DNA of 64,000 nt from Amia ocellicauda (taxonomy: Eukaryota > Chordata > Actinopteri > Amiiformes > Amiidae), in contig NW_027102660.1 of assembly GCF_036373705.1 (NCBI RefSeq), positions 806,001 to 870,000 of the forward strand. Reading direction: 5' to 3'. This document shows, piece by piece, positions 676 to 61,165 of this stretch. A program made the position numbers and the translations under genes. The stretch's first letter is position 1; each line of letters starts with the position of its first letter. Under the pieces are notes generated by a model. That model did not search any database and had not been told where the DNA came from. It saw only the letters and a program-made list of their open reading frames with translations.

Positions 676-1386
676 ATGTCCAGCGACATCAACATGAAAC
701 CCCGCAAGAAACAATCCCGGGCAAGGGTTCCTGTACTCACCAATTTGAAGATTGAACGCTCCTGGGTGTTGTTCTGCGGGGCTCGACAGGGTTACCGCTT
801 TAAAAGGGATCCCGGCTATGTTGGAGTGGAGCTTTTTGCTTTGGGAGAGAAGGAGGGTACGTTGGAACCTTTTGAGACGGTAATTGAATACTCTTATGAG
901 GACTGGTTGAAGGTGATGGCCTGGAAATATCTGGGGCTTGTGGATAAGACTCTAGAAGGCTTGCAAGAGGGTCCAAGAGAATGCGAAATGGAGTCTCCGA
1001 CTCAGGGTTTTGAAAGGTGTGAATGGGAAAGCTTGCAGAACTACGGTAGAGTGGTGAAGAGTCTATCTCTAACTACAGATCGTAAGATTTTGTTTAGCAG
1101 TACCCTGATTACAAACCCTATTGAAAGGGGTGTGGAGGATCCAGAAAAACAGGTTACTGAAATTATGTTTGACGCCGTGGACTGGCCGTTCTTGAAAGAG
1201 GTCATAAACTGAATAAATGATGGTTTTGACATCTTGACCAAATGTTCGCAACTGGATTTGGTTAGAAGGAGAATATGCTGGATTATGGATTATATATCCC
1301 CCTTGAATGACGACGACGATGATAAAACAGACGACGTGTGGGGTTTTGAAGGGGGGTCTGACGGCTCAGGGGCTACTCTCTTCTAA
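676..1386 (+). pseudogene. Gene A, unknown protein, one nonsense codon
   Basis: The first left-arm gene. Its full-length form (copies 2 and 5) is 236 aa with a basic start, no membrane segment and a strongly acidic tail (five consecutive Asp, then Gly/Ser-rich). I recognise no domain. Here a TGA at 1210-1212 replaces TGT and cuts the protein at 178 aa; the frame stays open on the far side to a stop at 1384-1386. Its place behind the terminal repeat suggests an early regulatory or host-interaction role, but that is inference. Confidence 0.75.
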
Positions 1387-1464: not shown

Positions 1465-2313
1465 ATGTCTTACCCGAAAGCTGCGGACGTCGACAGGCTC
1501 TACAGGCCTCTTCAAACCCGGGATCACCCCTGGTTCTATTCCCCAGATTTTGTATACACTCCGGAACCCTCTGACTGCGGTTACTCTCCAAGACCTCAGA
1601 CCCCGGTCCCTCAGGATGAAACAACATGCGGTGCGATGGATGTCCAAATGAGTCTCGGGGATCCCCAGCCTCTGGAGCTCATGGAGGGCCTTGATTTTGC
1701 CGAACTGTCTACCGTCTGTGCGTCTCAGGAGGGGGTCAGTCCAATGGATGTAGAAACACCCCACAAACCACCAGGCGACCCAATGAGCATCGGACTGTCC
1801 CGGAGGCATGATGAAGACGCAGGATTTATGCCCGGGGTATGTGACCAAGTAAGCAGAGTGGTTAAAAGCACCCTGGTGTATATTCTGAGTGCTCTCATCG
1901 ACCGAGCTCTGAAAGAAGTCTGTCGGGGGTGTGAAGTGAATCACCCCAGTCAGTTGAGACACAGTTGTTTGTTTGAACCAGACCGTTACTATTTCCTGTT
2001 CTATTTCAACGTGTTTTACAGAAGACTCAACAAACCGTGGCTGAAACTGGCACTAATCAAGGCGCTGTCTTACTCCCACATACATGTCACTGCGGGACAA
2101 GTCCAGAAAATCATAGATGAGATTTTGCTGGAGCTGAAAAAGGAGCCGTTTATAATAGAGAAACTTGGGCAGCTGCTCAATGACCTGGATGAGCCGAGTA
2201 GAAAAACCGCTGGCAAGCTAAAAGCTTATTTCTTCCGTAAAGAAGTTAAAGCTGGGGGCAGCGACGAAGAATTCGACATCTACGCCACTGATTCAGACTC
2301 TGACCTGAACTAA
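1465..2313 (+). CDS. Gene B, 282-aa protein with a Cys/His cluster
   Basis: An intact frame starting at the ATG after the TATA-like box. Residues 1-125 are Pro-rich and probably disordered. Residues 126-250 look folded and helical. A cluster C156-x3-H160-x5-H166-x-C168 could bind zinc. The C-terminus is acidic with SDEEFD and a TDSDSDLN end, like a CK2 target or activation region. I do not recognise the family. Gene C starts 12 bases after its stop. It is open in copies 1, 3 and 4, frameshifted in copy 2 and fused to gene C by a deletion in copy 5. Confidence 0.8.
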   Translation: MSYPKAADVDRLYRPLQTRDHPWFYSPDFVYTPEPSDCGYSPRPQTPVPQDETTCGAMDVQMSLGDPQPLELMEGLDFAELSTVCASQEGVSPMDVETPHKPPGDPMSIGLSRRHDEDAGFMPGVCDQVSRVVKSTLVYILSALIDRALKEVCRGCEVNHPSQLRHSCLFEPDRYYFLFYFNVFYRRLNKPWLKLALIKALSYSHIHVTAGQVQKIIDEILLELKKEPFIIEKLGQLLNDLDEPSRKTAGKLKAYFFRKEVKAGGSDEEFDIYATDSDSDLN

Positions 2314-9050: not shown

Positions 9051-12000
9051 AAGGCAGAGTGGTATAATCAGTCTTCAACACTCTTTTATTGTACACCACC
9101 CTGAACCGTTTGTTTAGTGATCTATTTTACAACGTGTACCCCTTTTTATTGCGATAGATCTGATTTCCGGCTGTAATAATCTCACGAGGAGGCGCGTCTT
9201 TCTCGGTTAAAAAACTTTCTACCAGGGTCGTCAGAGACTTGATGTTAATGAGCTTGATGTTACAGTGGTTCAGAGTGAAACCCTTAACTTTCATACAGGT
9301 CTTACCCGCAGCCGTTCTGTATGCGTAAGTCTTAGGACCCCCTGAAACAAACTCCACTATGTGGTCCTGAGGATCTAGTTCACTCGTTAACTCCCCAAGG
9401 TAGTCCCCGAGGGGAGGGACCCAATCCCCTGGCCTGGTGACAAAGATTACAGAGTCAGTATCTTGATAGAGCGTGCGTTCCTGCAACTGATCCATTAAGT
9501 TGTACAGTTCAAGCCGGGCGAAAGCCGTGGTAAAAACCGCTATGAAAACATTAACGTTCCCCTGTTTGGTGGGGAAATCTTTAGGGGCCCTCCACTGGAC
9601 CTGTGCCACGTGGTCATTTAAGAATTGAAAGTGTGATACTGCATGTTGTTTGGAAAACATAAATTCTATAAACTGTTTAGGGGTTTTAATCAAGGTTGTG
9701 TTTAGACGGTAATTTCTTTCCCCAAACTTACCCCACAGACTGTTTAAAATCAGTTTGGACATTTGTCTCTTGGCGGGGTTTACAGTTATGTTCCCCGGCT
9801 CTAGACGGATCCCTTCCTTTTCAAAATATTGCTGAACGTATTGCTCTTTGGCCGCGGAGTCAACACACCATGAGGGATAGCCCGATGCCTCCTGTTTCCC
9901 TTTCAGATGGGTCATAATGTAATCAGCAAAAAGAGTATCAGGTTTTTCAGAAAAATGCCAAACCTCATACACCTTACCGACTCTGTAACCTTTCTCCACC
10001 GCCTTGTCAAGCTCAATGCTACACCAGACACCCGTCAGCGCTCTCTCTTCATCACTGTGCAGACAAGAGGTAGTTTGATTTTCAGTTTCCACACACGTTC
10101 TACACAGAGGGAACATCAATTTTCCCGAACACCTGTAAGGCAACACGGGTAAGAACAGCTCGCGAGGAGGGTACATGGTGACTTTGATCAAACCAAAGTA
10201 ATGTCCGATTTCGAGAAAGTCACGATAAACAATGGTTGGACGCCCCATCGGGTACATTTTGGTCTTGTTGACATAAGGGTACAGACTGGTGAAATCATAG
10301 TAATCTACTCTCTCACCCTCCTTTACCTCATAATGTAAACAGAGGGCATTGGTACGACCCCCAAATAACGCATCCCGGGGCTCTAGACGTTCAGGAAAGT
10401 CCAAGGTTTCCATAAACCGTTGTACCCCCGCATCCTGTTGCTTCAGGGTCGTCCACTCGTGTTCCCAAATCACCAGCACGTTCAAACCATAGGTGTTTTT
10501 TAAAGTTTCAATTCGTTCCTGGAAATCATAGTACATATCACCGCAGAGTTTTTGTGTTACAGGGTTAAAGGTGTTTGGGTCGAAGCACTGAGGACAGCCA
10601 TGGTAAATACAACCTGCAAACTCATAAGCGGTACGCCGCCCGGACACGTCGCTAAAACCGTCTAAGTAGTAAGGCCCCATTTTGACTTCCCCTTGATTTA
10701 AAGCATGTCTGATGAAGATGTTATCCCGGGCACTCAGGTATTCCAGCCACTGTATGGAGACAGTCGAAAAGTTCTTTTGTCTAGCACGATAGTTGTCAGA
10801 AGTGGTGACCGCTATAGTGATTTTCTGCAAGAAATTGGACCGATACATTTTCATGCAGAGAGACGCTATGGTCACACTTTGCAAAGGGTCGAGACCCGAT
10901 GTGTTGATAACCTCGGCGCGGAAACGCACACAGGCTTCTTTAAGGATCACCACATCATTTTTACAATAAGCGGCCATCTCTTCTCGGTAATCAAAAACAC
11001 CTCCCTTAACCGTATTGTACCATTTAAAGAATTCCTCCCTCTCATGAGACATCATAGTATCAACCCCATAATAAGAGGCGGGCAGGTAGGACCCTCGATA
11101 ATTTTGAGTGTCCAGAGTATTAAAAAAATGGCAGAACCAACCTTTCTTCTGAGCCTCAAAACCCAGAGCCTTAGGCAAAGCGCTCAATTTCATGGGGAGG
11201 AAATTTAACGAGTCTATGTAACGTTAGTTGAAAGCTTCGTCGGTGAAACACATGATCTTGTTACCCTGAGCTATTATTTTTGGGGTCACCCCATTTTCCA
11301 CCAGATACTTCATCAAAATGTAAGAATCATAACCCTTAGCATTGTGGGCAATAAATGTGTAATTGAGGTATTTTGGACCGCGATACCGCGTAAAGAAATC
11401 CCTGACACAACTCTCACCGCTAGCTGACCACTCACGATCCAACATGTCAATACAGTGTATATAATTAGCAACGTGGACCCCGTTTTCTTGCCGGCATTCA
11501 AAAGCAAAAAAGACATACCGGTTGTGCGGCGGCTCCTTTTTAACCGGCTGAATAAAGCACTGGTGTTCGGACCCCGGGGTTAAATCAGCATTACAGATCC
11601 TGCATCTCGGCTCCAGACATTTGTGTGGTTTTATCTCATGAAAACGGTACTGGAGGCAACACTGCGGGCAATATTTAGTTTGATCACAATAACTCAATTT
11701 TTTAACCCCCTCAGCAGCGGCCCTCTGTACCTTATGCTCGGAAAAACAGAACGCTGAGAGACAAATCCTTAAGCAATCTTTACATCGGATGGTAGGGGCC
11801 AAACCCTTACGACATTGCGGATTGAAACAGACGTTACAGTAACCGTCACAGCGGTGCTTAAGCTTATCATTGAAGGCCTTATAACACCAATGACAAACAT
11901 ACGAACAACCCAAAAAAGCCGTCAAACTCTTTATTCCATAGTAATGACTATCACTTAGGAAGAGAAACAGTGTCTGTGTATGGGTTTCAGGATGTGTCTG

Positions 12001-13268
12001 AAATTTCACAAATACTTCCTTTACCTCACAACGGTACCACACAACAATTTTTAAAGACAACAACTCCTCAAACTTGGTGATGTCTGAAAAGGCAACCATC
12101 TGTTGAGAGTTTAAGCCGGCCCTCTGATGAAGCATTAAAGCCTCTTGCAGAGCTTGGGGTTCAGGCATGTCGGGGGTGAGTAGTTTTATTAAACTGTAAG
12201 CAAAACAGAGCTTATTGTCCCCACTGGAACTCACCACTAATTGCCTGAGCTTGGTCCTAATTATGTTGTTCTTCAAGCATTTCGACAGTCTTCTAAGCGC
12301 CCCACCCTCAGGGTTATGAACCACATTCATTACCAGAGACAGACTTTCATCAGCTAAGATGGCTGCGTTACTTTGCAATAACGCTTCGATTTTAGCCAGA
12401 CATCTAAATTATCTCCACTCAGCATTACAGATAGGTTGCTAAACAAATCATCCCCTCTGAGTTCTAACTGTACAACATCTCGAGGTCTGACCCTTTCAGC
12501 AACCTGTTCAAGCATTTTCTGCAAGGCCTCGTGTATGTTGACAAATATTTCTGCATAATTGTCACAATTTAAAAGTTCTGCAAAATTAAAACGCTGAATA
12601 ATTTCAAAATTGTTATAGGCCGGTCTATCTATAATCACGGGATCACTGGTACTCTTGGACACATCATCATTTTGAACAAAGCCTTCACCCCCTACATTCT
12701 CACAGAGCATGTCCTCCACAGCCTTATCAGTCTCAGAACCCTCCACATTCCGAACACCCCCACTGCTGACATCTACAAAACCCCCTTTTTGAGGAGGCTC
12801 ATTTAAAGCCTGTAAAAGTCCTTCAAAGATATCCAACCGGTTAATGTCAATACCCTCCTCTATAGTGATGGCTGCTTCTGCCGCCATCCTGTGTTCTAAT
12901 TGTCTCAAATCATTTATAATAGGGGCAGAATTTGGTAGGGGTAGCTCCTCCAAAGCCTCCACCATTTCAAACAAATCGGGGTGAACTAGGGGGTGAACCT
13001 CTATAAGCGCTACCGGTGGGAGGTGGTTATTTAGATCATTGACCATCTGTAACAGGTCGGGGTTCACCGGTAAGTCTGTTAATTCACATTCTATCGGTGG
13101 TAATTGGGGGTTATTTGAATCATTTATCATTTGTAATAGTTCCAGGTTCATTGGGACATCAGAGGAGTTCACAACAGGGCCGGGGATGTTCTCTCGGGAA
13201 GGTCTTTTTGGGGCCCTAGCTTGTTCATAATCCTTTAGTTTGTGAGTTCTTTTACCAAGTCAGGACAT
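9040..13268 (-). pseudogene. Protein-primed DNA polymerase B, at least five lesions
   Basis: Family B polymerase with the order: N-terminal acidic repeats (LLQMVNDLNN type), Cys-rich zinc-binding region, exonuclease motifs, then polymerase motifs DFTSLYP (A), KLILNSLWGKFGE (B) and DTDS (C). Lesions shared by copies 1-3: TGA two codons after the likely ATG at 13268 (13262-13260); a frame change between the 272-codon frame ending at 12354 and the frame that continues from there; TAA at 11226-11224 before the SLNFLP region. Private: TAA at 9129-9127. ExoI reads FAFE instead of FDFE. From 11193 a 688-codon frame is open. The end overlaps the ATPase start. Confidence 0.93.
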
Positions 13269-13334: not shown

Positions 13335-15188
13335 TTAAATACGGTACAATTCGTTAGTAAGGGGATTAATAAGGGTGTTTTGGCTCTCTATCATCAGGTT
13401 TTGCCCCACTAACACAAGTCTTTGATTTTGTAACAAAGTATGTAGCAACTCATGCCGACCTTCAGGAAGTAGCTCCGGGGGCTGGTGGCCTGGCTCAGCT
13501 TCAAAGGATGGTCGCTCCGGTAAATCTCGGTCGAAGGAGGCAGGGAGCGAGCGTATACTCATGGACGGAGACCAAGAAGGCCTTTGCGGTTACACCCTGG
13601 CCAAGCGCGGGGTACTGTTCCGCGTTTCTGTAGCCAAGAAACGGGTCTGGGGGGACGATGTTGAAACCAGGCCGTCGTTGGGTGGTGTGTCAGCCCTGAC
13701 TGACGGCGACCCCTGAGGTTGTTGGATGCCTGTATTTGTTCCGCCCGACAATGCGGCGGGCTGAATCTGGGGTGTTGAATTACCCCCAGAAGGCTGTGGC
13801 CTGAGTAGATGTTGGGGTGTCTCCAAGACCACCGTGGGGGATCCTCTCGGTGATCTCACCGGGGAAGATGTTTGATCCCACTTAGACGGGGTAATTGTCC
13901 TCAATAGCTCATCCACAGAATGACTATCCCAAGAGTCTTGGGAAGAATAAAAATATACATTACATTTACATCTTTAAACGGCGACAGAAATCAAACTTAA
14001 AACAACATGTCCAGGACATTCAAAACCTTTAGCTTTTTTAGACCTTTGAAAATAGCCTTAGACATTCACTACAACGCCTTATTATTTACAGACAATATAT
14101 TTATTAGGACTTGATAATAAATGTAAAACAGAGAAGCCGCTGTAAATATTAAATACAATGAACACCTTCAAGCCTTTTCCTACAACCACTTTAAAACAGA
14201 AGTATAATAGCGGGAGATAAGCCAAACAACTTACTAAACCCTTTCGGACGGCTTTACTTCCTAACCAGACGGTACGGCAATCGGTCATTTCTAAACACGT
14301 TCCCCAGAAACAAGCCTAGACCTGTCCGGACTTCTAAAGATCTTTCCCAGAACCCCCCGCCCTACAGGAAACGGTCACCCATCGCTTAAATATTAGCCCC
14401 CAACGGGCAAAACAAAGCCCTTTTAAAAACATTAAAGTTTGAAAGATCTTACTTACCTCCACAGAATAATCGTTTCTTATGTTTTTCGGCTGGTTTAGCT
14501 TTTTGCACCGCTGTGAATGTAAGAGACATGTTTAACCTTTAACCACACCGCTTTATAAAAAGCTTTAACCTCTTACAGGCTGCAGATATATACTCACAGC
14601 TATCAGATACCGGGGCTGACGGCCTTTCAGATTCTTGAAAGGTTACGGTTCTCGAAGGTAAAACGAAACAAGCCCTCGATGTGGAAGGCCTTTCGTTGTC
14701 TCGAACCACGTTTCTTAATACTGCTAGACAGGATAATTTTTTAAAATTAACAAAACTGGACTCAAACATCTTACAGAAACGTTATACAAACAAACAGGGG
14801 TTTAGTTCTTACCCGGTCGGCAGACAGCCTGTCTAGGGACAACCACTTCTCTTGGTCGATCCTCGGAGACATTAATCACAGGCCTTTCGATAGTTTCTGT
14901 GTAATTAAAGAGACCGGCATTAATATATATTAAAACGTTTTCATAACTCTAATGAGCCGCTTCAAAACCACACACACCCATACATAAGAACCCATGAGCG
15001 CAAACACAAAAATCTTACCGTCGTTGTTCCAGATGATCTCCTCAGCGTTGGGAATTAACTCCTGTTGACTGGCTGAAAAATAATTTTACAGAACTTAAAA
15101 CAGATGACGCTCTGAGTCAATGAAAATAATCTGAAGACTTGCCTAAAAACTCGTTTAAATCGAAGTCGCTGATGTTGTTTCCGGACAT
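13335..15188 (-). pseudogene. Six-exon spliced gene, unknown product, one nonsense codon in copy 1
   Basis: Exons on the minus strand: 15188-15143 (starts with ATG), 15072-15019, 14896-14813, 14720-14598, 14510-14457 and 13936-13335. Donors are GCAAGT, GTAAGA, GTAAGA, GTGAGT and GTAAGT; all acceptors end in AG after pyrimidine-rich tracts. All five introns are phase 1 and the exons sum to 963 bases, exactly 321 codons. Exon 1 is acidic (SDFDLNEFL). ERPS recurs in exons 4 (twice) and 6. Exon 6 is Pro/Ser-rich with many SP and TP sites and ends in a helical, Leu-rich stretch. TAA at 13592-13590 interrupts exon 6 here. Function unknown; a regulatory protein is a guess. Confidence 0.8.
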
Positions 15189-15300
15189 TGTTGATCTTTA
15201 GTTTTAAATCGAAAGGTCAGTGTGAGTCTGTCGAGCTGAAGACCAGACCTTCATACTTATACTGATGGCCACATGCCGGATCTGCTTGTAAGGCATTGTT
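15189..15300 (-). promoter_or_regulatory. TATA-like promoter of the six-exon gene
   Basis: On the minus strand AGTATAAGT at 15263-15255 lies 67 bases before the ATG of exon 1, the same distance as the TATA-like box of gene A on the other arm. The segment is conserved in copies 2 (about 32280) and 3 (about 50823). Confidence 0.5.
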
Positions 15301-16453: not shown

Positions 16454-16638
16454 TTATGGGCGGCCTTGTTGTTCAGGGTTTTATGGGTGTACACTTTCTG
16501 ACGGATATGACGTAGGAATAATTAAGGATATAACTCTACCTAAAATCACGCCCCCCAATTATGACGTAGGAATATTAATAAGCTTAGGGCATACGTCATA
16601 ACAAAATAGGCCGCGCCCAAAAAACCCTACTATCTACT
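16454..16638 (-). repeat. Right terminal inverted repeat, copy 1
   Basis: Reverse complement of the left repeat. Here all three ATF/CRE motifs are intact (16508-16513, 16562-16567, 16593-16598). It ends CCCTACTATCTACT. It is the only right terminal repeat in the window. Confidence 0.93.
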
Positions 16639-16644
16639 CATAAG
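16639..16644. repeat. Right target-site duplication CATAAG, copy 1
   Basis: Exact match to 367-372. The bases that follow (AGTAACAGCAATGTCG) equal those following the single CATAAG of the unoccupied sites at 33795 and 34759, which confirms the element boundary. Confidence 0.92.
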
Positions 16645-30169: not shown

Positions 30170-32210
30170 TTAAATACGGTACAATTCGTTAGTAAGGGTA
30201 TTAATAAGGGTGTTTTGGCTCTCTATCAGCAGGTTTTGCCCCACTAACACAAGTCTTTGATTTTGTAACAAAGTATGTAGCAACTCATGCCGACCTTCAG
30301 GAAGAAGCTCCGGGGGCTGGTGGCCTGGCTCAGCTTCAAAGGATGGTCGCTCCGGTAAATCTCGGTCGAAGGAGGCAAGGAGCGAGTGTATACTCATGGA
30401 CGGAGACCAAGAAGGCCTTTGCGGTGACACCCTGGCCAAGCGCGGGGTACTGTTCCGCGTTTCTGTAGCCAAGAAACGGGTCTGGGGGGACGATGTTGAA
30501 ACCAGGCCGTCGTTGGGTGGTGTGTCAGCCCTGACTGACGGCGACCCCTGAGGTTGTTGGATGCCTGTATTTGTTCCGCCCGACAATGCGGCGGGCTGAA
30601 TCTGGGGTGTTGAATTACCCCCAGAAGGCTGTGGCCTGAGTAGATGTTGGGGGGTCTCCAAGACCACCGTGGGGGATCCTCTCGGTGATCTCACCGGGAA
30701 AGATGTTTGATCCCACTTAGACGGGGTAATTGTCATCAATAGCTCATTCACAGAATGACTATCCCAAGAGTCTTGGGAAGAATAAAAATATACATTACAT
30801 TTACATCTTTAAACGGCGACAGAAATCAAACTTAAAACAACATGTCCAGGACATTCAAAACCTTTAGCTTTTTTAGACCTTTGAAAATAGCCTTAGACAT
30901 TCACTACAACGCCTTATTATTTACAGACAATATATTTATTAGGACTTGATAATAAATGTAAAACAGAGAAGCCGCTGTAAATAAACTGTTTCTTAAATGT
31001 TTCTTTAAAAACTGTAATATTGTTAATAAAACACACACACACACAACAACATTTCATTTTTAAACGAACCTTCCAAGTGTAAACGCTTCCTGATCCCGGG
31101 ACTTCCTGTTTCACAAACGTTTTCACGATCTGTTTAAATATTAAATACAATGAACACCTTCAAGCCTTTTCCTACAACCACTTTAAAACAGAAGTATAAT
31201 AGCGGGAGATAAGCCAAACAACTTACTAAACCCTTTCGGACGGCTTTACTTCCTAACCAGACGGTACGGCAATCGGTCATTTCTAAACACGTTCCCCAGA
31301 AACAAGCCTAGACCTGTCCGGACTTCTAAAGATCTTTCCCAGAACCCCCCGCCCTACAGGAAACGGTCACCCATCGCTTAAATATTAGCCCTCAACGGGC
31401 AAACAAAGCCCTTTTAAAAACATTAAAGTTTGAAAGATCTTACTTACCTCCACAGAATAATCGTTTCTTATGTTTTTCGGCTGGTTTAGCTTTTTGCACC
31501 GCTGTGAAGGTAAGAGACATGTTTAACCTTTAACCACACCGCTTTATAAAAAGCTTTAACCTCTTACAGGCTGCAGATATATACTCACAGCTATCAGATA
31601 CCGGGGCTGACGGCCTTTCAGATTCTTGAAAGGTTACGGTTCTCGAAGGTAAAACGAAACAAGCCCTCGATGTGGAAGGCCTTTCGTTGTCTCGAACCAC
31701 ATTTCTTAATACTGTTAGACAGGATAATTTTTTTAAATTAACAAAACTGGACTCAAACATCTTACAGAATCGTTATACAAACAAACAGGGGTTTAGTTCT
31801 TACCCGGTCGGCAGACAGCCTGTCTAGGGATAACCACTTCTCTTGGTCGATCCTCGGAGACATTAATCACAGGCCTTTCGATAGTTTCTGTGTAATTAAA
31901 GAGACCGGCATTAATATATATTAAAACGTTTTCATAACTCTAATGAGCCGCTTCAAAACCACACACACCCATGCATAAGAACCCATGAGCGCAAACACAA
32001 AATTCTTACCGTCGTTGTTCCAGATGATCTCCTCAGCGTTGGAAATGAACTCCTGTTGACTGGCTGAAAAATAATTTTACAGAACTTAAAACAGATGTTA
32101 TAGCCTTATTTACAATACATGCACACAACACGCTCTGAGTCAATGAAAATAATCTGAAGACTTGCCTAAAAACTCGTTTAAATCGAATCGCTGATGTTGT
32201 TTCCGGACAT
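30170..32210 (-). pseudogene. Six-exon gene, copy 2, frameshift in exon 1
   Basis: Exons 32210-32166, 32063-32010, 31887-31804, 31711-31589, 31501-31448 and 30771-30170. Exons 2-6 have the same lengths as in copy 1 (54, 84, 123, 54, 602) and all splice sites hold. Exon 1 is 45 instead of 46 bases because one base is lost, breaking the frame. Exon 6 is fully open here. The last intron carries about 160 bp that copy 1 has lost between two TAAATA motifs. An AATAAA-type signal follows the stop near 30117. Confidence 0.8.
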
Positions 32211-32784
32211 TGTTGATCTTTAGTCTTAAATCGAAAGGTCAGTATGAGTCTGTCGAGCTGAAGACCAGACCTTCATACTTATACTGATGGCCACATGCCG
32301 GATCTGCTTGTAAGGCATTGTTCTGGTCTGGCCTTTGTGCCGCCCTGTTACCAATTAACATATCAAAACCAACCAATAAAATGACACTGCATCAAATTTC
32401 AAATAGAAACCAAGATGGAGACGATCTCTCTCCTCTCTACTCTAAACTTTTATTAGAACCTTTTGGTCTCTCAAAAAAACATTTTTAAGCATCAAGACCT
32501 ATAGTCAACAACCACTAAGAATATTTCAGGCCTTTATAAGCACTAAAAAACAACCTGAGCCTAGAAAATAACTATAAAGATCTAAAATAACTAGCGCTTT
32601 TACAGTGATTTTTTTTTTTTTTAATAGCGATGCTTTGTTTGGTATTAAACAAGTCACAAACTACTCAGAACAGCGTTTATCCCCGCAAAAGAGATATTTG
32701 GGTTTATTTTACAAAGCTTATAAATTATATAGGTTAAAAGTATTCTGAATGTTTTGATATCACACGCCATACCAACTGTTGTCT
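32211..32784. other. Truncated non-coding right arm of copy 2
   Basis: Colinear with 15189-15775 of copy 1: promoter-like AGTATAAGT, then A/T-rich DNA with a poly(T) run. Ends at the junction with tRNA spacer. No gene is seen. Confidence 0.8.
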
Positions 32785-33080: not shown

Positions 33081-33153
33081 TGTTTCCGCCCGGTTTCGAA
33101 CCGGGGACCTTTCGCGCGTTAGGCGAACGTGATAACCGCTACACTACGGAAAC
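33081..33153 (-). tRNA. tRNA-Val (AAC)
   Basis: 73 bases with a perfect 7-bp acceptor stem (GTTTCCG/CGGAAAC), discriminator A, intact D, anticodon and T arms (GGTTCGAA) and internal A and B box sequences. Anticodon AAC is encoded at plus 33118-33120. Probably functional. Confidence 0.92.
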
Positions 33154-33528
33154 TGACACCGCTGCCTCTTGCTTCAAATGGTTACCGTTAAAGCCTGCTG
33201 GTAAAACGGGCTCAGGTGTTTCAGGTCGGCTAGGCTGTGAGATGGCGTCTGAAGTGCGGCGAAAGGATGCCATTTTCACTGACCTGTTTGGCATTGCTAA
33301 AGGGCACATCAGGACACTTCGGAAACTCTTTTAAAGGCAGGACGCCCTGCGCTCTGACAGTGCCTGCACTTAACCCAACAAGGTGATGCTGAATGGCTTG
33401 TTCAAACGTCTGGTGGTCTTCCTTCACCACCAGACTATCAGAGCTATTGTGCCTTCTACACCTTACGGTAGCAACAAATCTAACTACTGCTTTACTTTAA
33501 CATTAATAATGACGGCGACTACGACGAC

Positions 33529-33561
33529 AACAAGAATAACAACAACAACATCTTCATCATC
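33529..33561. repeat. AAC/ATC microsatellite
   Basis: Short form of the same microsatellite. Confidence 0.75.
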
Positions 33562-33794
33562 AGATTTTAATTAAAAGTGGCTACACCAGCGTTTACAATT
33601 TCAACCTGTCGACGGACGGACGCTCTGAGTGCACCGATTTCGGGACACTTCGGAAACTCTTTCAAAGGCAGGACGACCTGCGCTCTGACAGTGCCTGCGT
33701 TTAGCCCTACAAGGTGATGCTGAATGGCTTGTTCAAACGGCTGGTGGTCTTCCGTCACCACCAGACTATCAGAGCTATACTGCGCCTTCAACTA

Positions 33795-33800
33795 CATAAG
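33795..33800. other. Unoccupied Maverick target site
   Basis: A single CATAAG, flanked on the left by the sequence that precedes every element copy and on the right by the sequence that follows copy 1. This is the pre-insertion structure in a paralogous repeat unit. Confidence 0.9.
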
Positions 33801-34025
33801 AGTAACAGCAATGTCGCCGATCCTGCTACGGTCGTATTGTAACAGCAACAACATGTATCGATTTTAAAAGTGTCAGTTCCAGTGCCTCGCAAAGCTACCC
33901 TTCTGCGATTGTTTGTTCTCAAGGTCAGGATTTCTTGCCACTCCGAGGAAGAGAAAACGACGGCCGGCCTTGGGGCAGAGAGATGGCGACGGGTAACACG
34001 GCACTGGCACGCGTGCACCGCGGGT

Positions 34026-34098
34026 TGTTTCCGCCCGGTTTCGAACCAGGGACCTTTCGCGTGTGAGGCGAACGTGATAGCCACTACACTACGGAAAC
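34026..34098 (-). tRNA. tRNA-Val (CAC)
   Basis: 73 bases, anticodon CAC (plus 34063-34065). Acceptor stem perfect; one T-stem pair is a G-U wobble. Probably functional. Confidence 0.9.
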
Positions 34099-34454
34099 CA
34101 ACCCGTCCTGGTGTTTCAAATGGCTCCCATCGAAGCCGGCTGGTAAAACGCGCACAGGGGTTTCCCGTGGGCCAGCCTGTGAGATAAAGGTTTCTATTTT
34201 CACTGACCTATTTTGCATTGCTAAAGGGCACATCAGGACACTTTGGAAACTCTTTCAAAGGAAGAACGCCCTGAGCTATGACGAGACTTACACTTACCCT
34301 AACAAGGTGATGCTCAATGGCTTGTTCAAACAGCTGCTGCTCGTCTTGTGCCACCATCAGACAATCACAAAGCTATTGTGCCTTCTACACCTTACGGTAG
34401 CAACAAATCTAACTACTGCTTTACTTTAACAATAATAATGACGGCGACCACGAC

Positions 34455-34528
34455 GACAACAAGAAAAACAAAAGAACAACAACAACAACAAGAACAAGAA
34501 CAAGAACATCATCATCATCATCATCATA
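34455..34528. repeat. AAC/AAG/ATC microsatellite
   Basis: Longest version in this cluster, including AAGAAC and ATC runs. Confidence 0.8.
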
Positions 34529-34758
34529 TTTTAATTAAAAGTGGCTACACCAGCGTTTACAATTTCAACCTGTCGACGGACGGACGCTCTGAGTGCACCG
34601 ATTTCGGGACACTTAGGATACTCTATCAAAGGCAGGTCGCCCTGCGCTCTGACAGTGCCTGCACTCAGCCCAACAAGGTGATGCTGAATGGCTTGTTCAA
34701 ACGGTTGGAGGTCTTCCGTCACCACCAGACTATCAGAGCTATACTGCGCCTTCGACTA

Positions 34759-34764
34759 CATAAG
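34759..34764. other. Second unoccupied Maverick target site
   Basis: CATAAG with the same left and right context as 33795, differing by a single nearby base. Confidence 0.88.
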
Positions 34765-34989
34765 AGTAACAGCAATGTCGCTGATCCTGCTACGGTCGTA
34801 TTGTAACAGCTACAACATGTATCGATTTTAAAAGTGTGAGTTCCAGCGCCTCGCAAAGCTACCCTTCTGCGATCGTTTGTTCTCAAGGTCAGGATTTCTT
34901 GCCACTCCGAGGAAGAGAAAACGACGGCCGGCCTTGGGGCAGAGAGATGGCGACGGGTAACATGGCACTGGCACGCGTGCACCGCGGGT

Positions 34990-35062
34990 TGTTTCCGCCC
35001 GGTTTCGAACCGGGGACCTTTCGCGTGTGAGGCGAACGTGATAGCCACTACACTACAGAAAA
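34990..35062 (-). tRNA. tRNA-Val (CAC), damaged acceptor stem
   Basis: Good D, anticodon and T arms, but the 5' acceptor strand reads GTTTTCTG-like on the minus strand and mispairs at two places. It may be a pseudogene. Confidence 0.7.
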
Positions 35063-35413
35063 CGACCCGTCCTGGCGTTTCGAATGGCTCCCATCGAAGC
35101 AGGCTGATAAAACGCGCACAGGCGTTTCCCGTGGGCCAGCCTGTGAGATAAAGGTTTCTATTTTCACTGACCTATTTTGCATTGCTAAAGGGCACATCAG
35201 GACACTTTGGAAACTCTTTCAAAGGCAGGACGCCCTGCGCTCTGACAGTGCCTGCACTTAGCCCAACAAGGTGATGCTGAATGGCTTGTTCAAACGTCTG
35301 GTGGTCTTCCTTCACCACCAGACTATCAGAGCTATTGTGCCTTCTACACCTTACGGTAGCAACAAATCTAACTACTGCTTTACTTTAACAATAATAATGA
35401 CGGCGACTACGAC

Positions 35414-35468
35414 GACAACAAGAACAACAAGAACAACAACAACAACATCATCATCATCATCATCATCA
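35414..35468. repeat. AAC/ATC microsatellite
   Basis: AAC and ATC triplet runs before the TTTTAATTAAAAG block. Confidence 0.8.
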
Positions 35469-35632
35469 GATTTTAATTAAAAGTGGCTACACCAGCGTTT
35501 ACAATTTCAACCTGTCGACGGACGGACGCTCTGAGAGCACCGATTTCGGGCACTCCAATGAAGAAAAGCCACCCACCGCCTGCGGGGAACCACAAGGGCA
35601 AGCAGGACGAAAAGGGCCGGCCCAAAGCAGGC

Positions 35633-35705
35633 TGTTTCCGCCCGGTTTCGAAAAGGGGACCTTTCGCGCGTTAGGCGAATTTGATAACCGCTACACTTCG
35701 GAAAC
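35633..35705 (-). pseudogene. Degenerate tRNA-Val (AAC)
   Basis: 73 bases, anticodon AAC, but the T loop and T stem are altered (CGAAAAGG on the plus strand) and there is a change in the D arm and in the 5' acceptor side. Confidence 0.75.
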
Positions 35706-36754: not shown

Positions 36755-36832
36755 GAGGGCGGTGTGTCGTGACGTAGTGAAGAGATAGGATAAAAGGTGC
36801 AACAATTCATTCATGGTTTAAAATTAAAGAGA

Positions 36833-37681
36833 ATGTCTTACCCGAAAGCTGCGGACGTCGACAGGCTCTACAGGCCTCTTCAAACCCGGGATCACCCCTG
36901 GTTCTATTCCCCAGATTTTGTATACACTCTGGAACCCTTTGACTGTGGTTACTCTCCAAGACCTCAGACCCCGGTCCCTCAGGACGAAACAACATGCGGT
37001 GCGATGGATGTCCAAATGAGTCTCGGGGATCCCCAGCCTCTGGAGCTCATGGAGGGCCTCGATTTTGCCGAACTGTCTACCGTCTGTGCGTCTCAGGAGG
37101 GGGTCAGTCCAATGGATGGAGAAACACCCCACAAACCACCAGGCGACCCAATGAGCATCGGACTGTCCCGGGGGCGTGATGAAGACGCAGGATTTTTGCC
37201 CGGGGTATGTGACCAAGTAAGCAGAGTGGTTAAAAGCACCCTGGTGTATATTCTGAGTGCTCTCATCGACCGAGCTCTGAAAGAAGTCTGTCGGGGGTGT
37301 GAAGTGAATCACCCCAGTCAGTTGAGACACAGTTGTTTGTTTGAACCAGACCGTTACTATTTCCTGTTCTATTTCAACGTGTTTTACAGAAGACTGAACA
37401 AACCGTGGCTGAAACCGGCACTAATCAAGGCGCTCTCTTACTCCCACATACATGTCACTGTGGGACAAGTCCAGAAAATCATAGATGAGATTTTGCTGGA
37501 GCTGAAAAAGGAGCCGTTTATAATAGAGAAACTTGGGCAGCTGCTCAATGACCTGGATGAGCCGAGTAGAAAAACCGCTGGCAAGCTAAAAGCTTATTTC
37601 TTCCGTAAAGAAGTTAAAGCTGGGGGCAGCGACGAAGAATTCGACATCTACGCCACTGATTCAGACTCTGACCTGAACTAA
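36833..37681 (+). CDS. Gene B, intact
   Basis: 282 codons from the ATG that matches copy 1; the frame is open further upstream but only from a non-conserved ATG in the leader. The C156/H160/H166/C168 cluster and acidic end are preserved. Confidence 0.8.
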   Translation: MSYPKAADVDRLYRPLQTRDHPWFYSPDFVYTLEPFDCGYSPRPQTPVPQDETTCGAMDVQMSLGDPQPLELMEGLDFAELSTVCASQEGVSPMDGETPHKPPGDPMSIGLSRGRDEDAGFLPGVCDQVSRVVKSTLVYILSALIDRALKEVCRGCEVNHPSQLRHSCLFEPDRYYFLFYFNVFYRRLNKPWLKPALIKALSYSHIHVTVGQVQKIIDEILLELKKEPFIIEKLGQLLNDLDEPSRKTAGKLKAYFFRKEVKAGGSDEEFDIYATDSDSDLN

Positions 37682-48646: not shown

Positions 48647-48712
48647 TTTTTAATTTATTTTTTATTTTTCCAACAACCCACAATAGTAAGGCGTTTTGTG
48701 TCTATTAAAACA

Positions 48713-50753
48713 TTAAATACGGTACAATTCGTTAGTAAGGGTATTAATAAGGGTGTTTTGGCTCTCTATCACCAGGTTTTGCCCCACTAACACAAGTCTT
48801 TGATTTTGTAACAAAGTATGTAGCAACTCATGCCGACCTTCAGGAAGTAGCTCCGGGGGCTGGTGGCCTGGCTCAGCTTCAAAGGATGGTCGCTCCGGTA
48901 AATCTCGGTCGAAGGAGGCAGGGAGCGAGCGTATACTCATGGACGGAGACCAAGAAGGCCTTTGCGGTGACACCCTGGCCAAGCGCGGGGTACTGTTCCG
49001 CGTTTCTGTAGCCAAGAAACGGGTCTGGGGGGACGATGTTGAAACCAGGCCGTCGTTGGGTGGTGTGTCAGCCCTGACTGACGGCGACCCCTGAGGTTGT
49101 TGGATGCCTGTATTTGTTCCGCCCGACAATGCGGCGGGCTGAATCTGGGGTGTTGAATTACCCCCAGAAGGCTGTGGCCTGAGTAGATGTTGGGGGGTCT
49201 CCAAGACCACCGTGGGGGATCCTATCGGTGATCTCACCGGGGAAGATGTTTGATCCCACTTAGACGGGGTAATTGTCCTCAATAGCTCATCCACAGAATG
49301 ACTATCCCAAGAGTCTTGGGAAGAATAAAAATATACATTACATTTACATCTTTAAACGGTGACAGAAATCAAACTTAAAACAACATGTCCAGGACATTCA
49401 AAACCTTTAGCTTTTTTAAACCTTTGAAAATAGCCTTAGACATTCACTACAACGCCTTATTATTTACAGACAATATATTTATTAGGACTTGATAATAAAT
49501 GTAAAACAGAGAAGCCGCTGTAAATAAACTGTTTCTTAAATGTTTCTTTAAAAACTGTAATATTGTTAATAAAACACACACACGCACAACAACATTTCAT
49601 TTTTAAACGAACCTTCCAAGTGTAAACGCTTCCTGATCCCGGGACTTCCTGTTTCACAAATGTTTTCACGATCTGTTTAAATATTAAATACAATGAACAC
49701 CTTCAAGCCTTTTCCTACAACCACTTTAAAACAGAAGTATAATAGCGGGAGATAAGCCAAACAACTTACTAAACCCTTTCGGACGTCTTTACTTCCTAAC
49801 CAGACGGTACGGCAATCGGTCATTTCTAAACACGTTCCCCAGAAACAAGCATAGACCTGTCCGGACTTCTAAAGATCTTTCCCAGAACCCCCCGCCCTAC
49901 AGGAAACGGTCACCCATCGCTTAAATATTAGCCATCAACGGGCAAACAAAGCCCTTTTAAAAACATTAAAGTTTGAAAGATCTTACTTACCTCCACAGAA
50001 TAATCGTTTCTTATGTTTTTCGGCTGGTTTAGCTTTTTGCACCGCTGTGAAGGTAAGAGACATGTTTAACCTTTAACCACACCGCTTTATAAAAAGCTTT
50101 AACCTCTTACAGGCTGCAGACATATACTCACAGCTATCAGATACCGGGGCTAACGGCCTTTCAGATTCTTGAAAGGTTACGGTTCTCGAAGGTAAAACGA
50201 AACAAGCCCTCGATGTGGAAGGCCTTTCGTTGTCTCGAACCACGTTTCTTAATACTGTTAGACAGGATAATTTTTTAAAATTAACAAAACTGGACTCAAA
50301 CATCTTACAGAAACGTTATACAAACAAACAGGGGTTTAGTTCTTACCCGGTCGGCAGACAGCCTGTCTAGGGACAACCACTTCTCTTGGTCGATCCTCGG
50401 AGACATTAATCACAGGCCTTTCGATAGTTTCTGTGTAATTAAAGAGACCGGCATTAATATATATTAAAACGTTTTCATAACTCTAATGAGCCGCTTCAAA
50501 ACCACACACACCCATGCATAAGAACCCATGAGCGCAAACACAAAAATCTTACCGTCGTTGTTCCAGATGATCTCCTCAGCGTTGGGAATTAACTCCTGTT
50601 GACTGGTTGAAAAATAATTTTACAGAACTTAAAACAGATGTTATAGCCTTATTTACAATACATGCACACAACACGCTCTGAGTCAATGAAAATAATCTGA
50701 AGACTTGCCTAAAAACTCGTTTAAATCGAATCGCTGATGTTGTTTCCGGACAT
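48713..50753 (-). pseudogene. Six-exon gene, copy 3, exon 1 frameshift and lost acceptor
   Basis: Exons 50753-50709, 50606-50553, 50430-50347, 50254-50132, 50044-49991 and 49314-48713. Exon lengths match copy 2. Exon 1 has the same one-base loss as copy 2. The acceptor before exon 2 has changed from CAG to CAA (plus GGTTG at 50605-50609). Exon 6 is open. Confidence 0.8.
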
Positions 50754-51329
50754 TGTTGATCTTTAGTCTTAAATCGAAAGGTCAGTATGAGTCTGTCGAG
50801 CTGAAGACCAGACCTTCATACTTATACTGATGGCCACATGCCGGATCTGTTTGTAAGGCATTGTTCTGGTCTGGCCTTTGTGCCACCCTGTTACCAATTA
50901 ACATATCAAAACCAACCAATAAAATGACACTGCATCAAATTTCAAATAGAAACCAAGATGGAGACGATCTCTCTCCTCTCTACTCTAAACTTTTATTAGA
51001 ACCTTTTGGTCTCTCAAAAAAACATTTTTAAGCATCAAGACCTATAGTCAACAACCACTAAGAATATTTCAGGCCTTTATAAGCGCTAAAAAACAACCTG
51101 AGCCTAGAAAATAACTATAAAGATCAAAAATAACTAGCGCTTTTACAGTGATTTTTTTTTTTTTTTTTATAGCGATGCTTTGTTTGGTATTAAACAAGTC
51201 ACAAACTACTCAGAACAGCGTTTATCCCCGCAAAAGAGATATTTGGGTTTATTTTACAAAGCTTATAAATTATATAGGTTAAAAGTATTCTGAATGTTTT
51301 GATATCACACGCCATACCAACTGTTGTCT
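50754..51329. other. Truncated non-coding right arm of copy 3
   Basis: Colinear with 32211-32784. Ends at the same junction. No gene is seen. Confidence 0.8.
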
Positions 51330-52737: not shown

Positions 52738-52815
52738 GAGGGCGGTGTGTCGTGACGTAGTGAAGAGATAGGATAAAAGGTGCAACAATTCATTCATGGT
52801 TTAAAATTAAAGAGA

Positions 52816-53664
52816 ATGTCTTACCCGAAAGCTGCGGACGTCGACAGGCTCTACAGGCCTCTTCAAACCCGGGATCACCCCTGGTTCTATTCCCCATATT
52901 TTGTATACACTCTGGAACCCTTTGACTGTGGTTACTCTCCAAGACCTCAGACCCCGGTCCCTCAGGACGAAACAACATGCGGTGCGATGGATGTCCAAAT
53001 GAGTCTCGGGGATCCCCAGCCTCTGGAGCTCATGGAGGGCCTCGATTTTGCCGAACTGTCTACCGTCTGTGCGTCTCAGGAGGGGGTCAGTCCAATGGAT
53101 GGAGAAACACCCCACAAACCACCAGGCGACCCAATGAGCATCGGACTGTCCCGGGGGCGTGATGAAGACGCAGGATTTATGCCCGGGGTATGTGACCAAG
53201 TAAGCAGAGTGGTTAAAAGCACCCTGGTGTATATTCTGAGTGCTCTCATCGACCGAGCTCTGAAAGAAGTCTGTCGGGGGTGTGAAGTGAATCACCCCAG
53301 TCAGTTGAGACACAGTTGTTTGTTTGAACCAGACCGTTACTATTTCCTGTTCTATTTCAATGTGTTTTACAGAAGACTGAACAAACCGTGGCTGAAACCG
53401 GCACTAATCAAGGCGCTCTCTTACTCCCACATACATGTCACTGTGGGACAAGTCCAGAAAATCATAGATGAGATTTTGCTGGAGCTGAAAAAGGAGCCGT
53501 TTATAATAGAGAAACTTGGGCAGCTGCTCAATGACCTGGATGAGCCGAGTAGAAAAACCGCTGGCAAGCTAAAAGCTTATTTCTTCCGTAAAGAAGTTAA
53601 AGCTGGGGGCAGCGACGAAGAATTCGACATCTACGCCACTGATTCAGACTCTGACCTGAACTAA
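52816..53664 (+). CDS. Gene B, intact
   Basis: 282 codons, nearly the same as copy 3 (Tyr for Asp at residue 28). The Cys/His cluster is intact. Confidence 0.8.
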   Translation: MSYPKAADVDRLYRPLQTRDHPWFYSPYFVYTLEPFDCGYSPRPQTPVPQDETTCGAMDVQMSLGDPQPLELMEGLDFAELSTVCASQEGVSPMDGETPHKPPGDPMSIGLSRGRDEDAGFMPGVCDQVSRVVKSTLVYILSALIDRALKEVCRGCEVNHPSQLRHSCLFEPDRYYFLFYFNVFYRRLNKPWLKPALIKALSYSHIHVTVGQVQKIIDEILLELKKEPFIIEKLGQLLNDLDEPSRKTAGKLKAYFFRKEVKAGGSDEEFDIYATDSDSDLN

Positions 53665-59649: not shown

Positions 59650-59891
59650 TATTTTCACTGACCTATTTTGCATTGCTCAAGGACACATCAGGACACTTTG
59701 GAAACTCTTTCAAAGGAAGAACGCCCTGAGCTATGACAAGACTTACACTTACCCCAACAAGGTGATGCTCAATGGCTTGTTCAAACAGCTGCTGCTCGTC
59801 TTGTGCCACCATCAGACAATCACAGAGCTATTGTGCCTTCTACACCTTACGGTAGCTTTACTTTAACAATAATAATGACGGCGACCACGAC

Positions 59892-59948
59892 GACAAAAAG
59901 AAAAACAAGAACAACAACAACAACAACAAGAACAATAACATCATCATC
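59892..59948. repeat. AAC/ATC microsatellite
   Basis: AAG/AAC runs then three ATC triplets. Confidence 0.78.
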
Positions 59949-60113
59949 AGATTTTAATTAAAAGTGGCTACACCAGCGTTTACAATTTCAACCTGTCGAC
60001 GGACGGACGCTCTGAGTCCAACAATTTCGGGAACTCCAATGAAGAAAAGCCACCTACCGCCTCTGGGGAACCACGAGGGCAAGCAGGACGAAAAGGGCCG
60101 GCCCACAGCAGGC

Positions 60114-60186
60114 TCTTTCCGCCCGGTTTCAAACCGGGGACCTTTCGTGCGTTAGGCGAATGTGATAGCCACTACACTATGGAAAC
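60114..60186 (-). pseudogene. Degenerate tRNA-Val (AAC)
   Basis: 73 bases, anticodon AAC; the T loop has lost the CG of GTTCGAA (reads TTTGAA on the minus strand), and there are changes in the acceptor and D arms. Confidence 0.72.
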
Positions 60187-60542
60187 CAACCCGTCCTGGT
60201 GTTTCGAATAACTCCTATCGAAGCCGGCTGGTAAAACGCTCACAGGCGTTTCCCGTGGGCCAGCCTGTGAGATAAAGGTTTCTATTTTCACTGACCTATT
60301 TTGCATTGCTCAAGGGCACATCAGGACACTTTGGAAACTCTTTCAAAGGAAGAACGCCCTGAGCAATGACAAGACTTACACTTACCCCAACAAGGTGATG
60401 CTCAATGGCTTGTTCAAACAGCTGCTGCTCGTCTTGTGCCACCATCAGACAATCACAGAGCTATTGTGCCTTCTGCACCTTACGGTAGCAACAAATCTAA
60501 CTACTGCTTTACTTTAACATTAATAATGACGGCGACTACGAC

Positions 60543-60613
60543 GACAACAAGAACAACAACAACAACAACAACATCAACAAGAACAACAACAACATCATCA
60601 TCATCATCATCAG
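60543..60613. repeat. AAC/ATC microsatellite
   Basis: AAC and ATC triplet runs before TTTTAATTAAAAG. Confidence 0.8.
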
Positions 60614-60776
60614 ATTTTAATTAAAAGTGGCTACACCAGCGTTTACAATTTCAACCTGTCGACGGACGGACGCTCTGAGAGCACCGATTTCGGGCACTCC
60701 AATGAAGAAAAGCTACCCACCGCCTCCGGGGAACCACGAGGGCAAACAGGACGAAAAGGGCCGGCCCACAGCAGGC

Positions 60777-60849
60777 TGTTTCCGCCCGGTTTCGAACCGG
60801 GGACCTTTCGCGTGTTAGGCGAACGTGATAACCGCTACACTACGGAAAC
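60777..60849 (-). tRNA. tRNA-Val (AAC)
   Basis: 73 bases, perfect acceptor, D, anticodon and T stems, anticodon AAC, anticodon-stem side ACACGCG. The cleanest tRNA of the window. Confidence 0.93.
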
Positions 60850-61165
60850 TGACACCGCCACGTCTTGCTTCAAACGGTTACCGTTGAAGCCTGCTGGTAA
60901 AACGGGCTCAGGCATTTCAGGTCGGCTAGACTGTGAGATGGCGTCTGAAGTGCCGCGAAAGGATGCCATTTTCACAGACCTGTTTGGCATTGCTAAAGGG
61001 CACATCAGGACACTTCGGAAACTCTTTCAAAGGCAGGACGCCCTGCGCTCTGACAGTGCCTGCACTTAGCCCAACAAGGTGATGCTGAATGGCTTGTTCA
61101 AACGGCTGGTGGTCTTCCGTCACCACCAGACTATCAGAGCTATACTGCGCCTTCAACTACATAAG

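What the first reader, a model, noticed from the sequence alone, without database searches (positions are those of the whole stretch)
13335..15188. A six-exon spliced gene in the right arm of a Maverick element
Six minus-strand exons (46, 54, 84, 123, 54 and 602 bases) join with five phase-1 introns into exactly 321 codons. Four donors are near-consensus GT sites and one is a GC site. All exon boundaries are kept in copies 2 and 3, with exons 2-6 identical in length. ERPS recurs in exons 4 and 6. Seen as separate open frames, only exon 6 looks like a gene, so the rest is easily missed. All-symmetric phase-1 introns suggest exon duplication. I do not recognise the protein; it may be an undescribed regulatory gene.
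Basis: partly seen in the sequence, partly recalled or inferred. Interest (0 to 1): 0.9.

Follow-up and report, generated by a model that had tools for sequence, protein, structure and literature searches.

The report
Spliced regulator-like gene in bowfin Mavericks
Virus-like Maverick elements in a bowfin genome carry a gene that is cut into seven pieces and must be spliced, unlike the unspliced genes reported for such elements, and the fast-changing protein it would make looks like a regulator that may dock on the host's cell-cycle machinery.

Summary
The six exons, phases and splice sites are as stated. The gene, however, has seven coding exons (46, 54, 84, 123, 54, 60, 602 nt; 340 codons plus stop). 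Copy 1 lost the 60-nt exon in a 157-nt deletion and has an in-frame TAA at codon 236. Copies 2 and 3 lose the frame in exon 1. So none of the three window copies is intact.

Of 40 copies read outside the window's array, 33 have all seven exons open with GT-AG at all six introns. Among 32 copies indels avoid exons (3 events against 25 in introns, P = 3e-5). Two NCBI bowfin (Amia ocellicauda) protein models join the last four exons as found here. I saw no spliced reads. The protein is an orphan under weak constraint (dN/dS 0.62-0.74).

My reading: a disordered, early regulatory adaptor, encoded in the accessory region next to PolB. Exons 5 and 5b each hold a cyclin-docking-like (RXL) motif, followed by CDK-type sites. 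Splicing is well supported; the function is inferred. The main survey I could read reports intronless genes in intact vertebrate Mavericks.

The parts
15248..15264 (-). TATA-like element about 70 nt before the ATG (also at 32270-32286 and 50813-50829)
   Evidence: Same string in the 3 window copies and seen in L039, L040, L041
15143..15188 (-). Exon 1, 46 nt, ATG; donor GC here, GT outside the array
15019..15072 (-). Exon 2, 54 nt
14813..14896 (-). Exon 3, 84 nt; two [ED]RP motifs
14598..14720 (-). Exon 4, 123 nt; two [ED]RP motifs
14457..14510 (-). Exon 5, 54 nt; RXL-like motif KKRLF
13937..14456 (-). Intron 5 of copy 1, which carries a 157-nt deletion that removed exon 5b
13335..13936 (-). 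Exon 6, 602 nt; in-frame TAA at 13592-13590 in copy 1; run of S/T-P sites; predicted C-terminal helices
30170..32210 (-). Copy 2: seven exons at 32166-32210, 32010-32063, 31804-31887, 31589-31711, 31448-31501, 31070-31129, 30170-30771; exon 1 is 45 nt and loses the frame
48713..50753 (-). Copy 3: seven exons at 50709-50753, 50553-50606, 50347-50430, 50132-50254, 49991-50044, 49613-49672, 48713-49314; exon 1 is 45 nt and loses the frame; intron-1 acceptor AA
31070..31129 (-).
48654..48666 (-). AATAAA/ATTAAA hexamers between the stop of the gene and the PolB-side ATG in copy 3 (likewise in copy 2; not in copy 1)
9127..13259 (-). Next genes on the same strand: 301-aa frame and PolB in two frames (394 and 698 aa) in copy 1
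16454..16642 (.). Right terminal inverted repeat of copy 1, 98% complementary to 369-557

Best explanation
This is a genuine accessory gene of a bowfin Maverick family that is processed by the host spliceosome. It is the first gene inside the right end, read from a TATA-like promoter toward the PolB module. Seven coding exons joined by six phase-1 introns give a 340-residue, largely disordered protein. Every internal exon is frame-neutral, so any of them can be left out without losing the frame. I infer that the protein is an early nuclear regulatory adaptor: exons 5 and 5b each hold an RXL/Cy-like cyclin-docking motif, CDK-type S/T-P sites follow at once in exon 6, and the C-terminus is a predicted helical stretch that may multimerise. 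The likeliest action is to sense or bend host cyclin-CDK activity in favour of the element, as HCMV pp150 and pUL21a do through RXL motifs. Shown: exon structure, kept frames and splice sites, avoidance of indels. Inferred: transcription, splicing in cells, isoforms, nuclear site, cyclin binding, early timing.
For: All seven exons open and GT-AG at six introns in 33 of 40 loci read outside the window's array. Indels 3 in exons against 25 in introns, P = 2.7e-5. Two NCBI Amia models join exons 4, 5, 5b and 6 as here. TATA-like element in 6 of 6 copies looked at and AATAAA after the stop in 4 of 5. Two RXL motifs with a preceding basic residue against 0.07 expected, P = 0.002, and 13 S/T-P against 6.3, P = 0.005 (L039); both RXL motifs recur in the three subfamilies sampled. 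Viral precedents for RXL docking: passages of PMC4231158 and PMC8669474.
Against: No RNA reads. dN/dS only 0.62-0.74 in nine pairs, not significant in the deepest pair (P = 0.10), and 0.3 to 1.3 in the shallower pairs. With the looser RXL pattern the enrichment vanishes (P = 0.15), and all patterns were chosen after reading the sequence. Single copies lose an RXL motif (L041, L071, L064, L065). Both NCBI models start at or just before exon 4, not at exon 1. No relative outside bowfin was found. In L078 exon 1 and splice sites are altered.
Confidence: 0.5

Rival explanations
1. A disordered antagonist of host innate immunity or of silencing. The repeated [ED]RP motif would be the real docking module, and the RXL-like strings only basic nuclear-localisation patches.
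For: [ED]RP occurs 5 times against 0.36 expected, 0 of 3000 shuffles (L039); fast evolution and disorder; accessory place next to the end.
Against: The RXL strings fit docking better than a plain basic patch, having F or L at +1/+2; no family match to any known antagonist.
Confidence: 0.2
2. A replication partner of PolB, for instance a terminal-protein-like or processivity factor, since it lies directly upstream of PolB on the same strand.
For: Position; spliced leader exons upstream of polymerase and terminal-protein genes are recalled from adenovirus.
Against: Predicted disorder (mean pLDDT 34.9 from only four sequences), weak constraint, no match to replication families.
Confidence: 0.08
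3. Only exons 4, 5, 5b and 6 form the gene; exons 1-3 are chance open stretches.
For: Short stretches are often open by chance. Both NCBI models begin near exon 4; P0001 begins with an ATG that reads through what I call intron 3 (compared by eye).
Against: Exons 1-3 with their splice sites are kept in 33 of 40 loci outside the array. The P0002 locus is itself damaged in exons 2 and 3 (L076), which would explain that model.
Confidence: 0.07
4. Not a gene: a decayed or never coding stretch kept alike by recent copying.
For: All three window copies are damaged; 37 of 38 loci L001-L038 have a stop or a frameshift in it.
Against: Indel contrast and open frames in dispersed copies of three subfamilies; exons diverge less than introns in nine of nine pairs.
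Confidence: 0.04

Closest known systems
Accessory regions of vertebrate Mavericks (Barreat and Katzourakis 2021, PMC8097293; section 7 and passages seen)
   Same: Lies outside the core modules, between the PolB module and the terminal repeat, where that paper places accessory ORFs.
   [quoted passage not shown] this gene has six.
HCMV pUL21a and pp150, viral RXL/Cy proteins (PMC4231158, PMC8669474; passages seen)
   Same: RXL motif with F or L at +1/+2; S/T-P sites beside it here, as in substrate-type RXL proteins such as pp150.
   Different: No sequence relation was found; first RXL residue is K here; binding not tested; pUL21a lacks full CDK sites.
Oncoid class of small DNA viruses (PMC11071296; section 16 and passages seen)
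   Same: Defined by short linear motifs in otherwise unrecognisable proteins.
   Different: No LXCXE here; whether any Oncoid has such an exon structure was not seen in the passages read.
Adenovirus E1A (recalled)
   Same: End-proximal, TATA-driven, spliced, disordered, rich in motifs.
   Different: No homology found; no LXCXE; seven exons instead of the few of E1A.

Membership tests
Maverick/Polinton element (the carrier) | Viral-type DNA polymerase B | tested here: met
   PF03175, E = 5.2e-39, window 9127-11223
Maverick/Polinton element (the carrier) | Retrovirus-like integrase, here with chromodomain | tested here: met
   Chromo E = 1.8e-9 above cut-off; rve_3 only E = 0.059, below cut-off
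Maverick/Polinton element (the carrier) | Adenain-type protease and A32-type ATPase | tested here: inconclusive
   Peptidase_C5 20.1 bits (cut-off 21.3) and Pox_A32 19.3 bits (cut-off 22.8): weak matches in the expected places
Maverick/Polinton element (the carrier) | Capsid genes | tested here: inconclusive
   No Pfam match for 9 of the 10 frames (the tenth is the chromodomain frame) nor for the 295- and 359-aa frames; not looked for by profile or fold
Maverick/Polinton element (the carrier) | Terminal inverted repeats and two modules facing the centre | tested here: met
   189 nt, 98% complementary; plus-strand frames left, minus-strand frames right
RXL/Cy cyclin-docking proteins | RXL core with bulky hydrophobic residue at +1 or +2 | tested here: met
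   Exons 5 and 5b, P = 0.002 with a preceding basic residue, P = 0.15 with the loose pattern; criterion from PMC4231158
RXL/Cy cyclin-docking proteins | Binds the hydrophobic patch of a cyclin | not testable with these tools
   Needs a binding assay
LXCXE-type viral oncoproteins | LXCXE motif | tested here: not met
   0 occurrences in L039, L036 and L074
Any described protein family | Sequence match above cut-off | tested here: not met
   Pfam, NCBIfam, PHROGs, PDB sequences; only two Amia proteins in the large protein search

The most novel reading that the evidence does not exclude
A vertebrate Maverick carries a motif-cassette regulator: frame-neutral mini-exons each hold one or two short docking motifs, and host alternative splicing, above all of exon 5b with its second RXL motif, tunes docking to cyclin-CDK, so that the element reads or steers the host cell cycle. 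It would be the first multi-intron spliceosomal gene described for vertebrate Mavericks, as far as the papers I could search go.
Probability: 0.2. Interest if true: 0.8.

Novelty: new variant of a known kind. Interest (0 to 1): 0.62.

Why it matters
Intact vertebrate Mavericks are reported to have intronless genes (PMC8097293), so surveys based on open frames see only the last exon of a gene like this. If it is spliced as the sequence says, Mavericks use the host spliceosome for a regulatory gene, as adenoviruses do (recalled). That fits the view of them as nuclear DNA viruses and opens a way to ask how they control their replication. The bowfin, with many dispersed copies whose frames are open, makes the question testable with ordinary RNA-seq.

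Tried and rejected
Exon duplication: 21 exon pairs compared, none stands out. Relatives outside bowfin: the protein search with exon 6 (373 candidates) and with the four-sequence alignment (7993 candidates scored, a capped list) found only the two Amia proteins. IMG/VR scans with PolB, a PolB alignment and the gene's alignment found no relative. Structure: one low-confidence model (mean pLDDT 34.9), so no fold search was run. PDB sequence matches to ETV6 (E = 0.11 at best) are weak and in a serine/proline-rich stretch. LXCXE was looked for and not found. The question whether more distant Maverick families of the same genome carry the gene (a Brienomyrus PolB as query) did not complete. The adintovirus paper of Starrett et al. 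2021 is not held and was not read. An earlier count gave the deletion as 152 nt; the alignments give 157 nt.

Full report
The carrier. The window holds head-to-tail, partly truncated copies of a Maverick-type element: DNA polymerase B (PF03175, E = 5.2e-39), a chromodomain (E = 1.8e-9) behind an integrase-like frame, and weak, below-cut-off matches to an adenain-type protease and an A32-type ATPase; 189-nt terminal inverted repeats; and modules on opposite strands facing the centre. It lies in a 988-Mb genome of 385 contigs. The only protein relatives of the gene found are from Amia ocellicauda, a bowfin, so the host is that species or a near one; this is inference.

The observation. But copy 1 has an in-frame TAA at codon 236 of 321. 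Copies 2 and 3 have a 45-nt exon 1 that leaves the frame, and copy 3 reads AA at the first acceptor. They match a 60-nt phase-1 exon in copies 2 and 3, inside 157 nt that copy 1 has lost, with a 6-nt match at the edges. So the gene has seven coding exons, 1023 nt. Because the lost exon is frame-neutral, six exons looked complete.

Other copies. Of 38 loci of the window's array type (L001-L038; L001 and L017 are window copies 1 and 3), one, L036, has all seven exons open; all 38 have the GC donor at exon 1. Outside that array I read 40 loci. All seven exons open with AG and GT at all introns: 2 of 3 (L039-L041), 27 of 30 (L042-L071), 4 of 4 (L072-L075), 0 of 3 (L076-L078); together 33 of 40. 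The seven failures: L040 lacks part of exon 2 and exons 3 to 5b; L055 has a frameshift in exon 2; L064 and L065 have a stop in exon 5; L076 and L077 have a lost acceptor, a stop in exon 3 and a frameshift late in exon 6; L078 has altered splice sites. All were picked by similarity to exon 6, so intact copies are over-represented, and several are nearly identical to each other. Some, such as L072, lie in other tandem arrays.

Selection. Over 32 loci (L039, L041, L042-L071; L040 was left out for lack of exons) there are 25 indel events in 1067 intron columns and 3 in the exons (1023 nt), two of these of 3 nt and one, in L055, of 2 nt (P = 2.7e-5). Variable sites: 112 in introns, 77 in exons (P = 0.018), with 18, 28 and 31 at codon positions 1, 2 and 3. 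In nine further pairs, with the older subfamily, exons always diverge less than introns (8.0% against 9.7% in the deepest), dN/dS is 0.62-0.74, and indels are 0 or 1 in exons against 6 to 13 in introns (where the lengths of exon 6 differ only its first 580 nt were compared). The deepest pair alone is not significant for dN/dS (P = 0.10), and the nine shallower pairs range from about 0.3 to 1.3. So frame and splice sites are kept while residues are only weakly constrained, as expected of a disordered, motif-bearing protein. I did not measure the core genes in the same way.

Signals. A TATA-like element stands about 70 nt before the ATG in the six copies looked at: three in the window, and L039-L041. 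AATAAA hexamers follow the stop in copies 2 and 3, L039 and L041, not in copy 1. The next frame on the same strand, which runs into PolB, starts there with its own ATG in L039 and L041. In L039 donors match 6 to 8 of 8 consensus positions. Exon 5b has the fewest pyrimidines before its acceptor (8 of 15, others 9 to 13) and a donor GTTCGT that scores 6 of 8, like those of three other exons; that it is the most skippable exon is a guess.

The protein. No family match (P0002 has a below-cut-off Arteri_env line, E = 0.015). The model from four sequences is of low confidence throughout, with helices only near the C-terminus and two short ones. In single copies with residues shuffled over the exons (figures for L039; L036 and L074 agree closely, with 12 S/T-P and 4 [ED]RP in L074): RXL with a preceding basic residue 2 against 0.07, P = 0.002; looser RXL 2 against 0.7, P = 0.15; S/T-P 13 against 6.3, P = 0.005; S/T-P-x-K/R 3 against 0.7, P = 0.03; [ED]RP 5 against 0.36, 0 of 3000; SUMO-interaction-like 1 against 0.3, P = 0.28; LXCXE 0. 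The patterns were chosen after reading the sequence, so these values flatter the motifs. Likeness to the docking sites of p21, p107 and E2F1, and of exon 1 to acidic activation domains, is recalled, not tested.

Mechanism. Best reading: an early regulatory adaptor that docks on cyclin-CDK. There is viral precedent: pUL21a binds cyclin A2 through RRLFQ, and pp150 is docked on and phosphorylated by cyclin A-CDK (passages of PMC4231158 and PMC8669474). CDK-type sites next to the motifs make a substrate likelier than an inhibitor. I give this part about even odds and the spliced gene itself about 0.95.

Novelty. Barreat and Katzourakis (PMC8097293; section 7 and passages) state that no introns were seen in the genes of intact vertebrate Mavericks and that accessory regions flank the core. 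Group I self-splicing introns in some protist polinton-like viruses (PMC12220804, passages) are another matter. The paper searches listed no paper whose title or abstract start tells of a spliced Maverick gene in bowfin; I saw the listings, not the papers, and most subscription papers are not held. The gene is not wholly unseen: NCBI lists partial models of it as uncharacterized proteins. I file it as a new variant: a known kind of place with an unreported gene architecture and an orphan protein.

Noticed in passing
Window 1-64000; G000 contigs C11 (first Mb), C12-C17, C31, C63, C68, C89, C198, C297, C340: The elements stand head to tail, 16-18 kb apart, over what looks like several megabases: of 150 scored exon-6 places (1014 candidates) nearly all lie on these contigs. 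A tandem array of Mavericks on this scale was not in the papers listed by the searches.
   Followed up: partly
G000:C6:49.48-50.65 Mb, C25:1.33-2.22 Mb, C42, C55, C78, C372; also starts of C8, C117, C143: Further arrays of other subfamilies of the same element.
   Followed up: no
676-1212 (+) and 1465-2313 (+): Two left-arm accessory frames of 178 and 282 aa without Pfam match; the 295-aa stop-to-stop frame of the second recurs at the same length in copies 3 and 4 (36794-37681, 52777-53664).
   Followed up: partly
14721-14812 (-), intron 3: In P0001 the first 16 residues look like an in-frame read-through of this intron from an internal ATG, which could mark an alternative start or a mere prediction artefact (compared by eye).
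   Followed up: no
33100-35700 and 59650-61150: Nested end-derived repeats between element copies, about 62-100% alike, which may show how the array grew.
   Followed up: no
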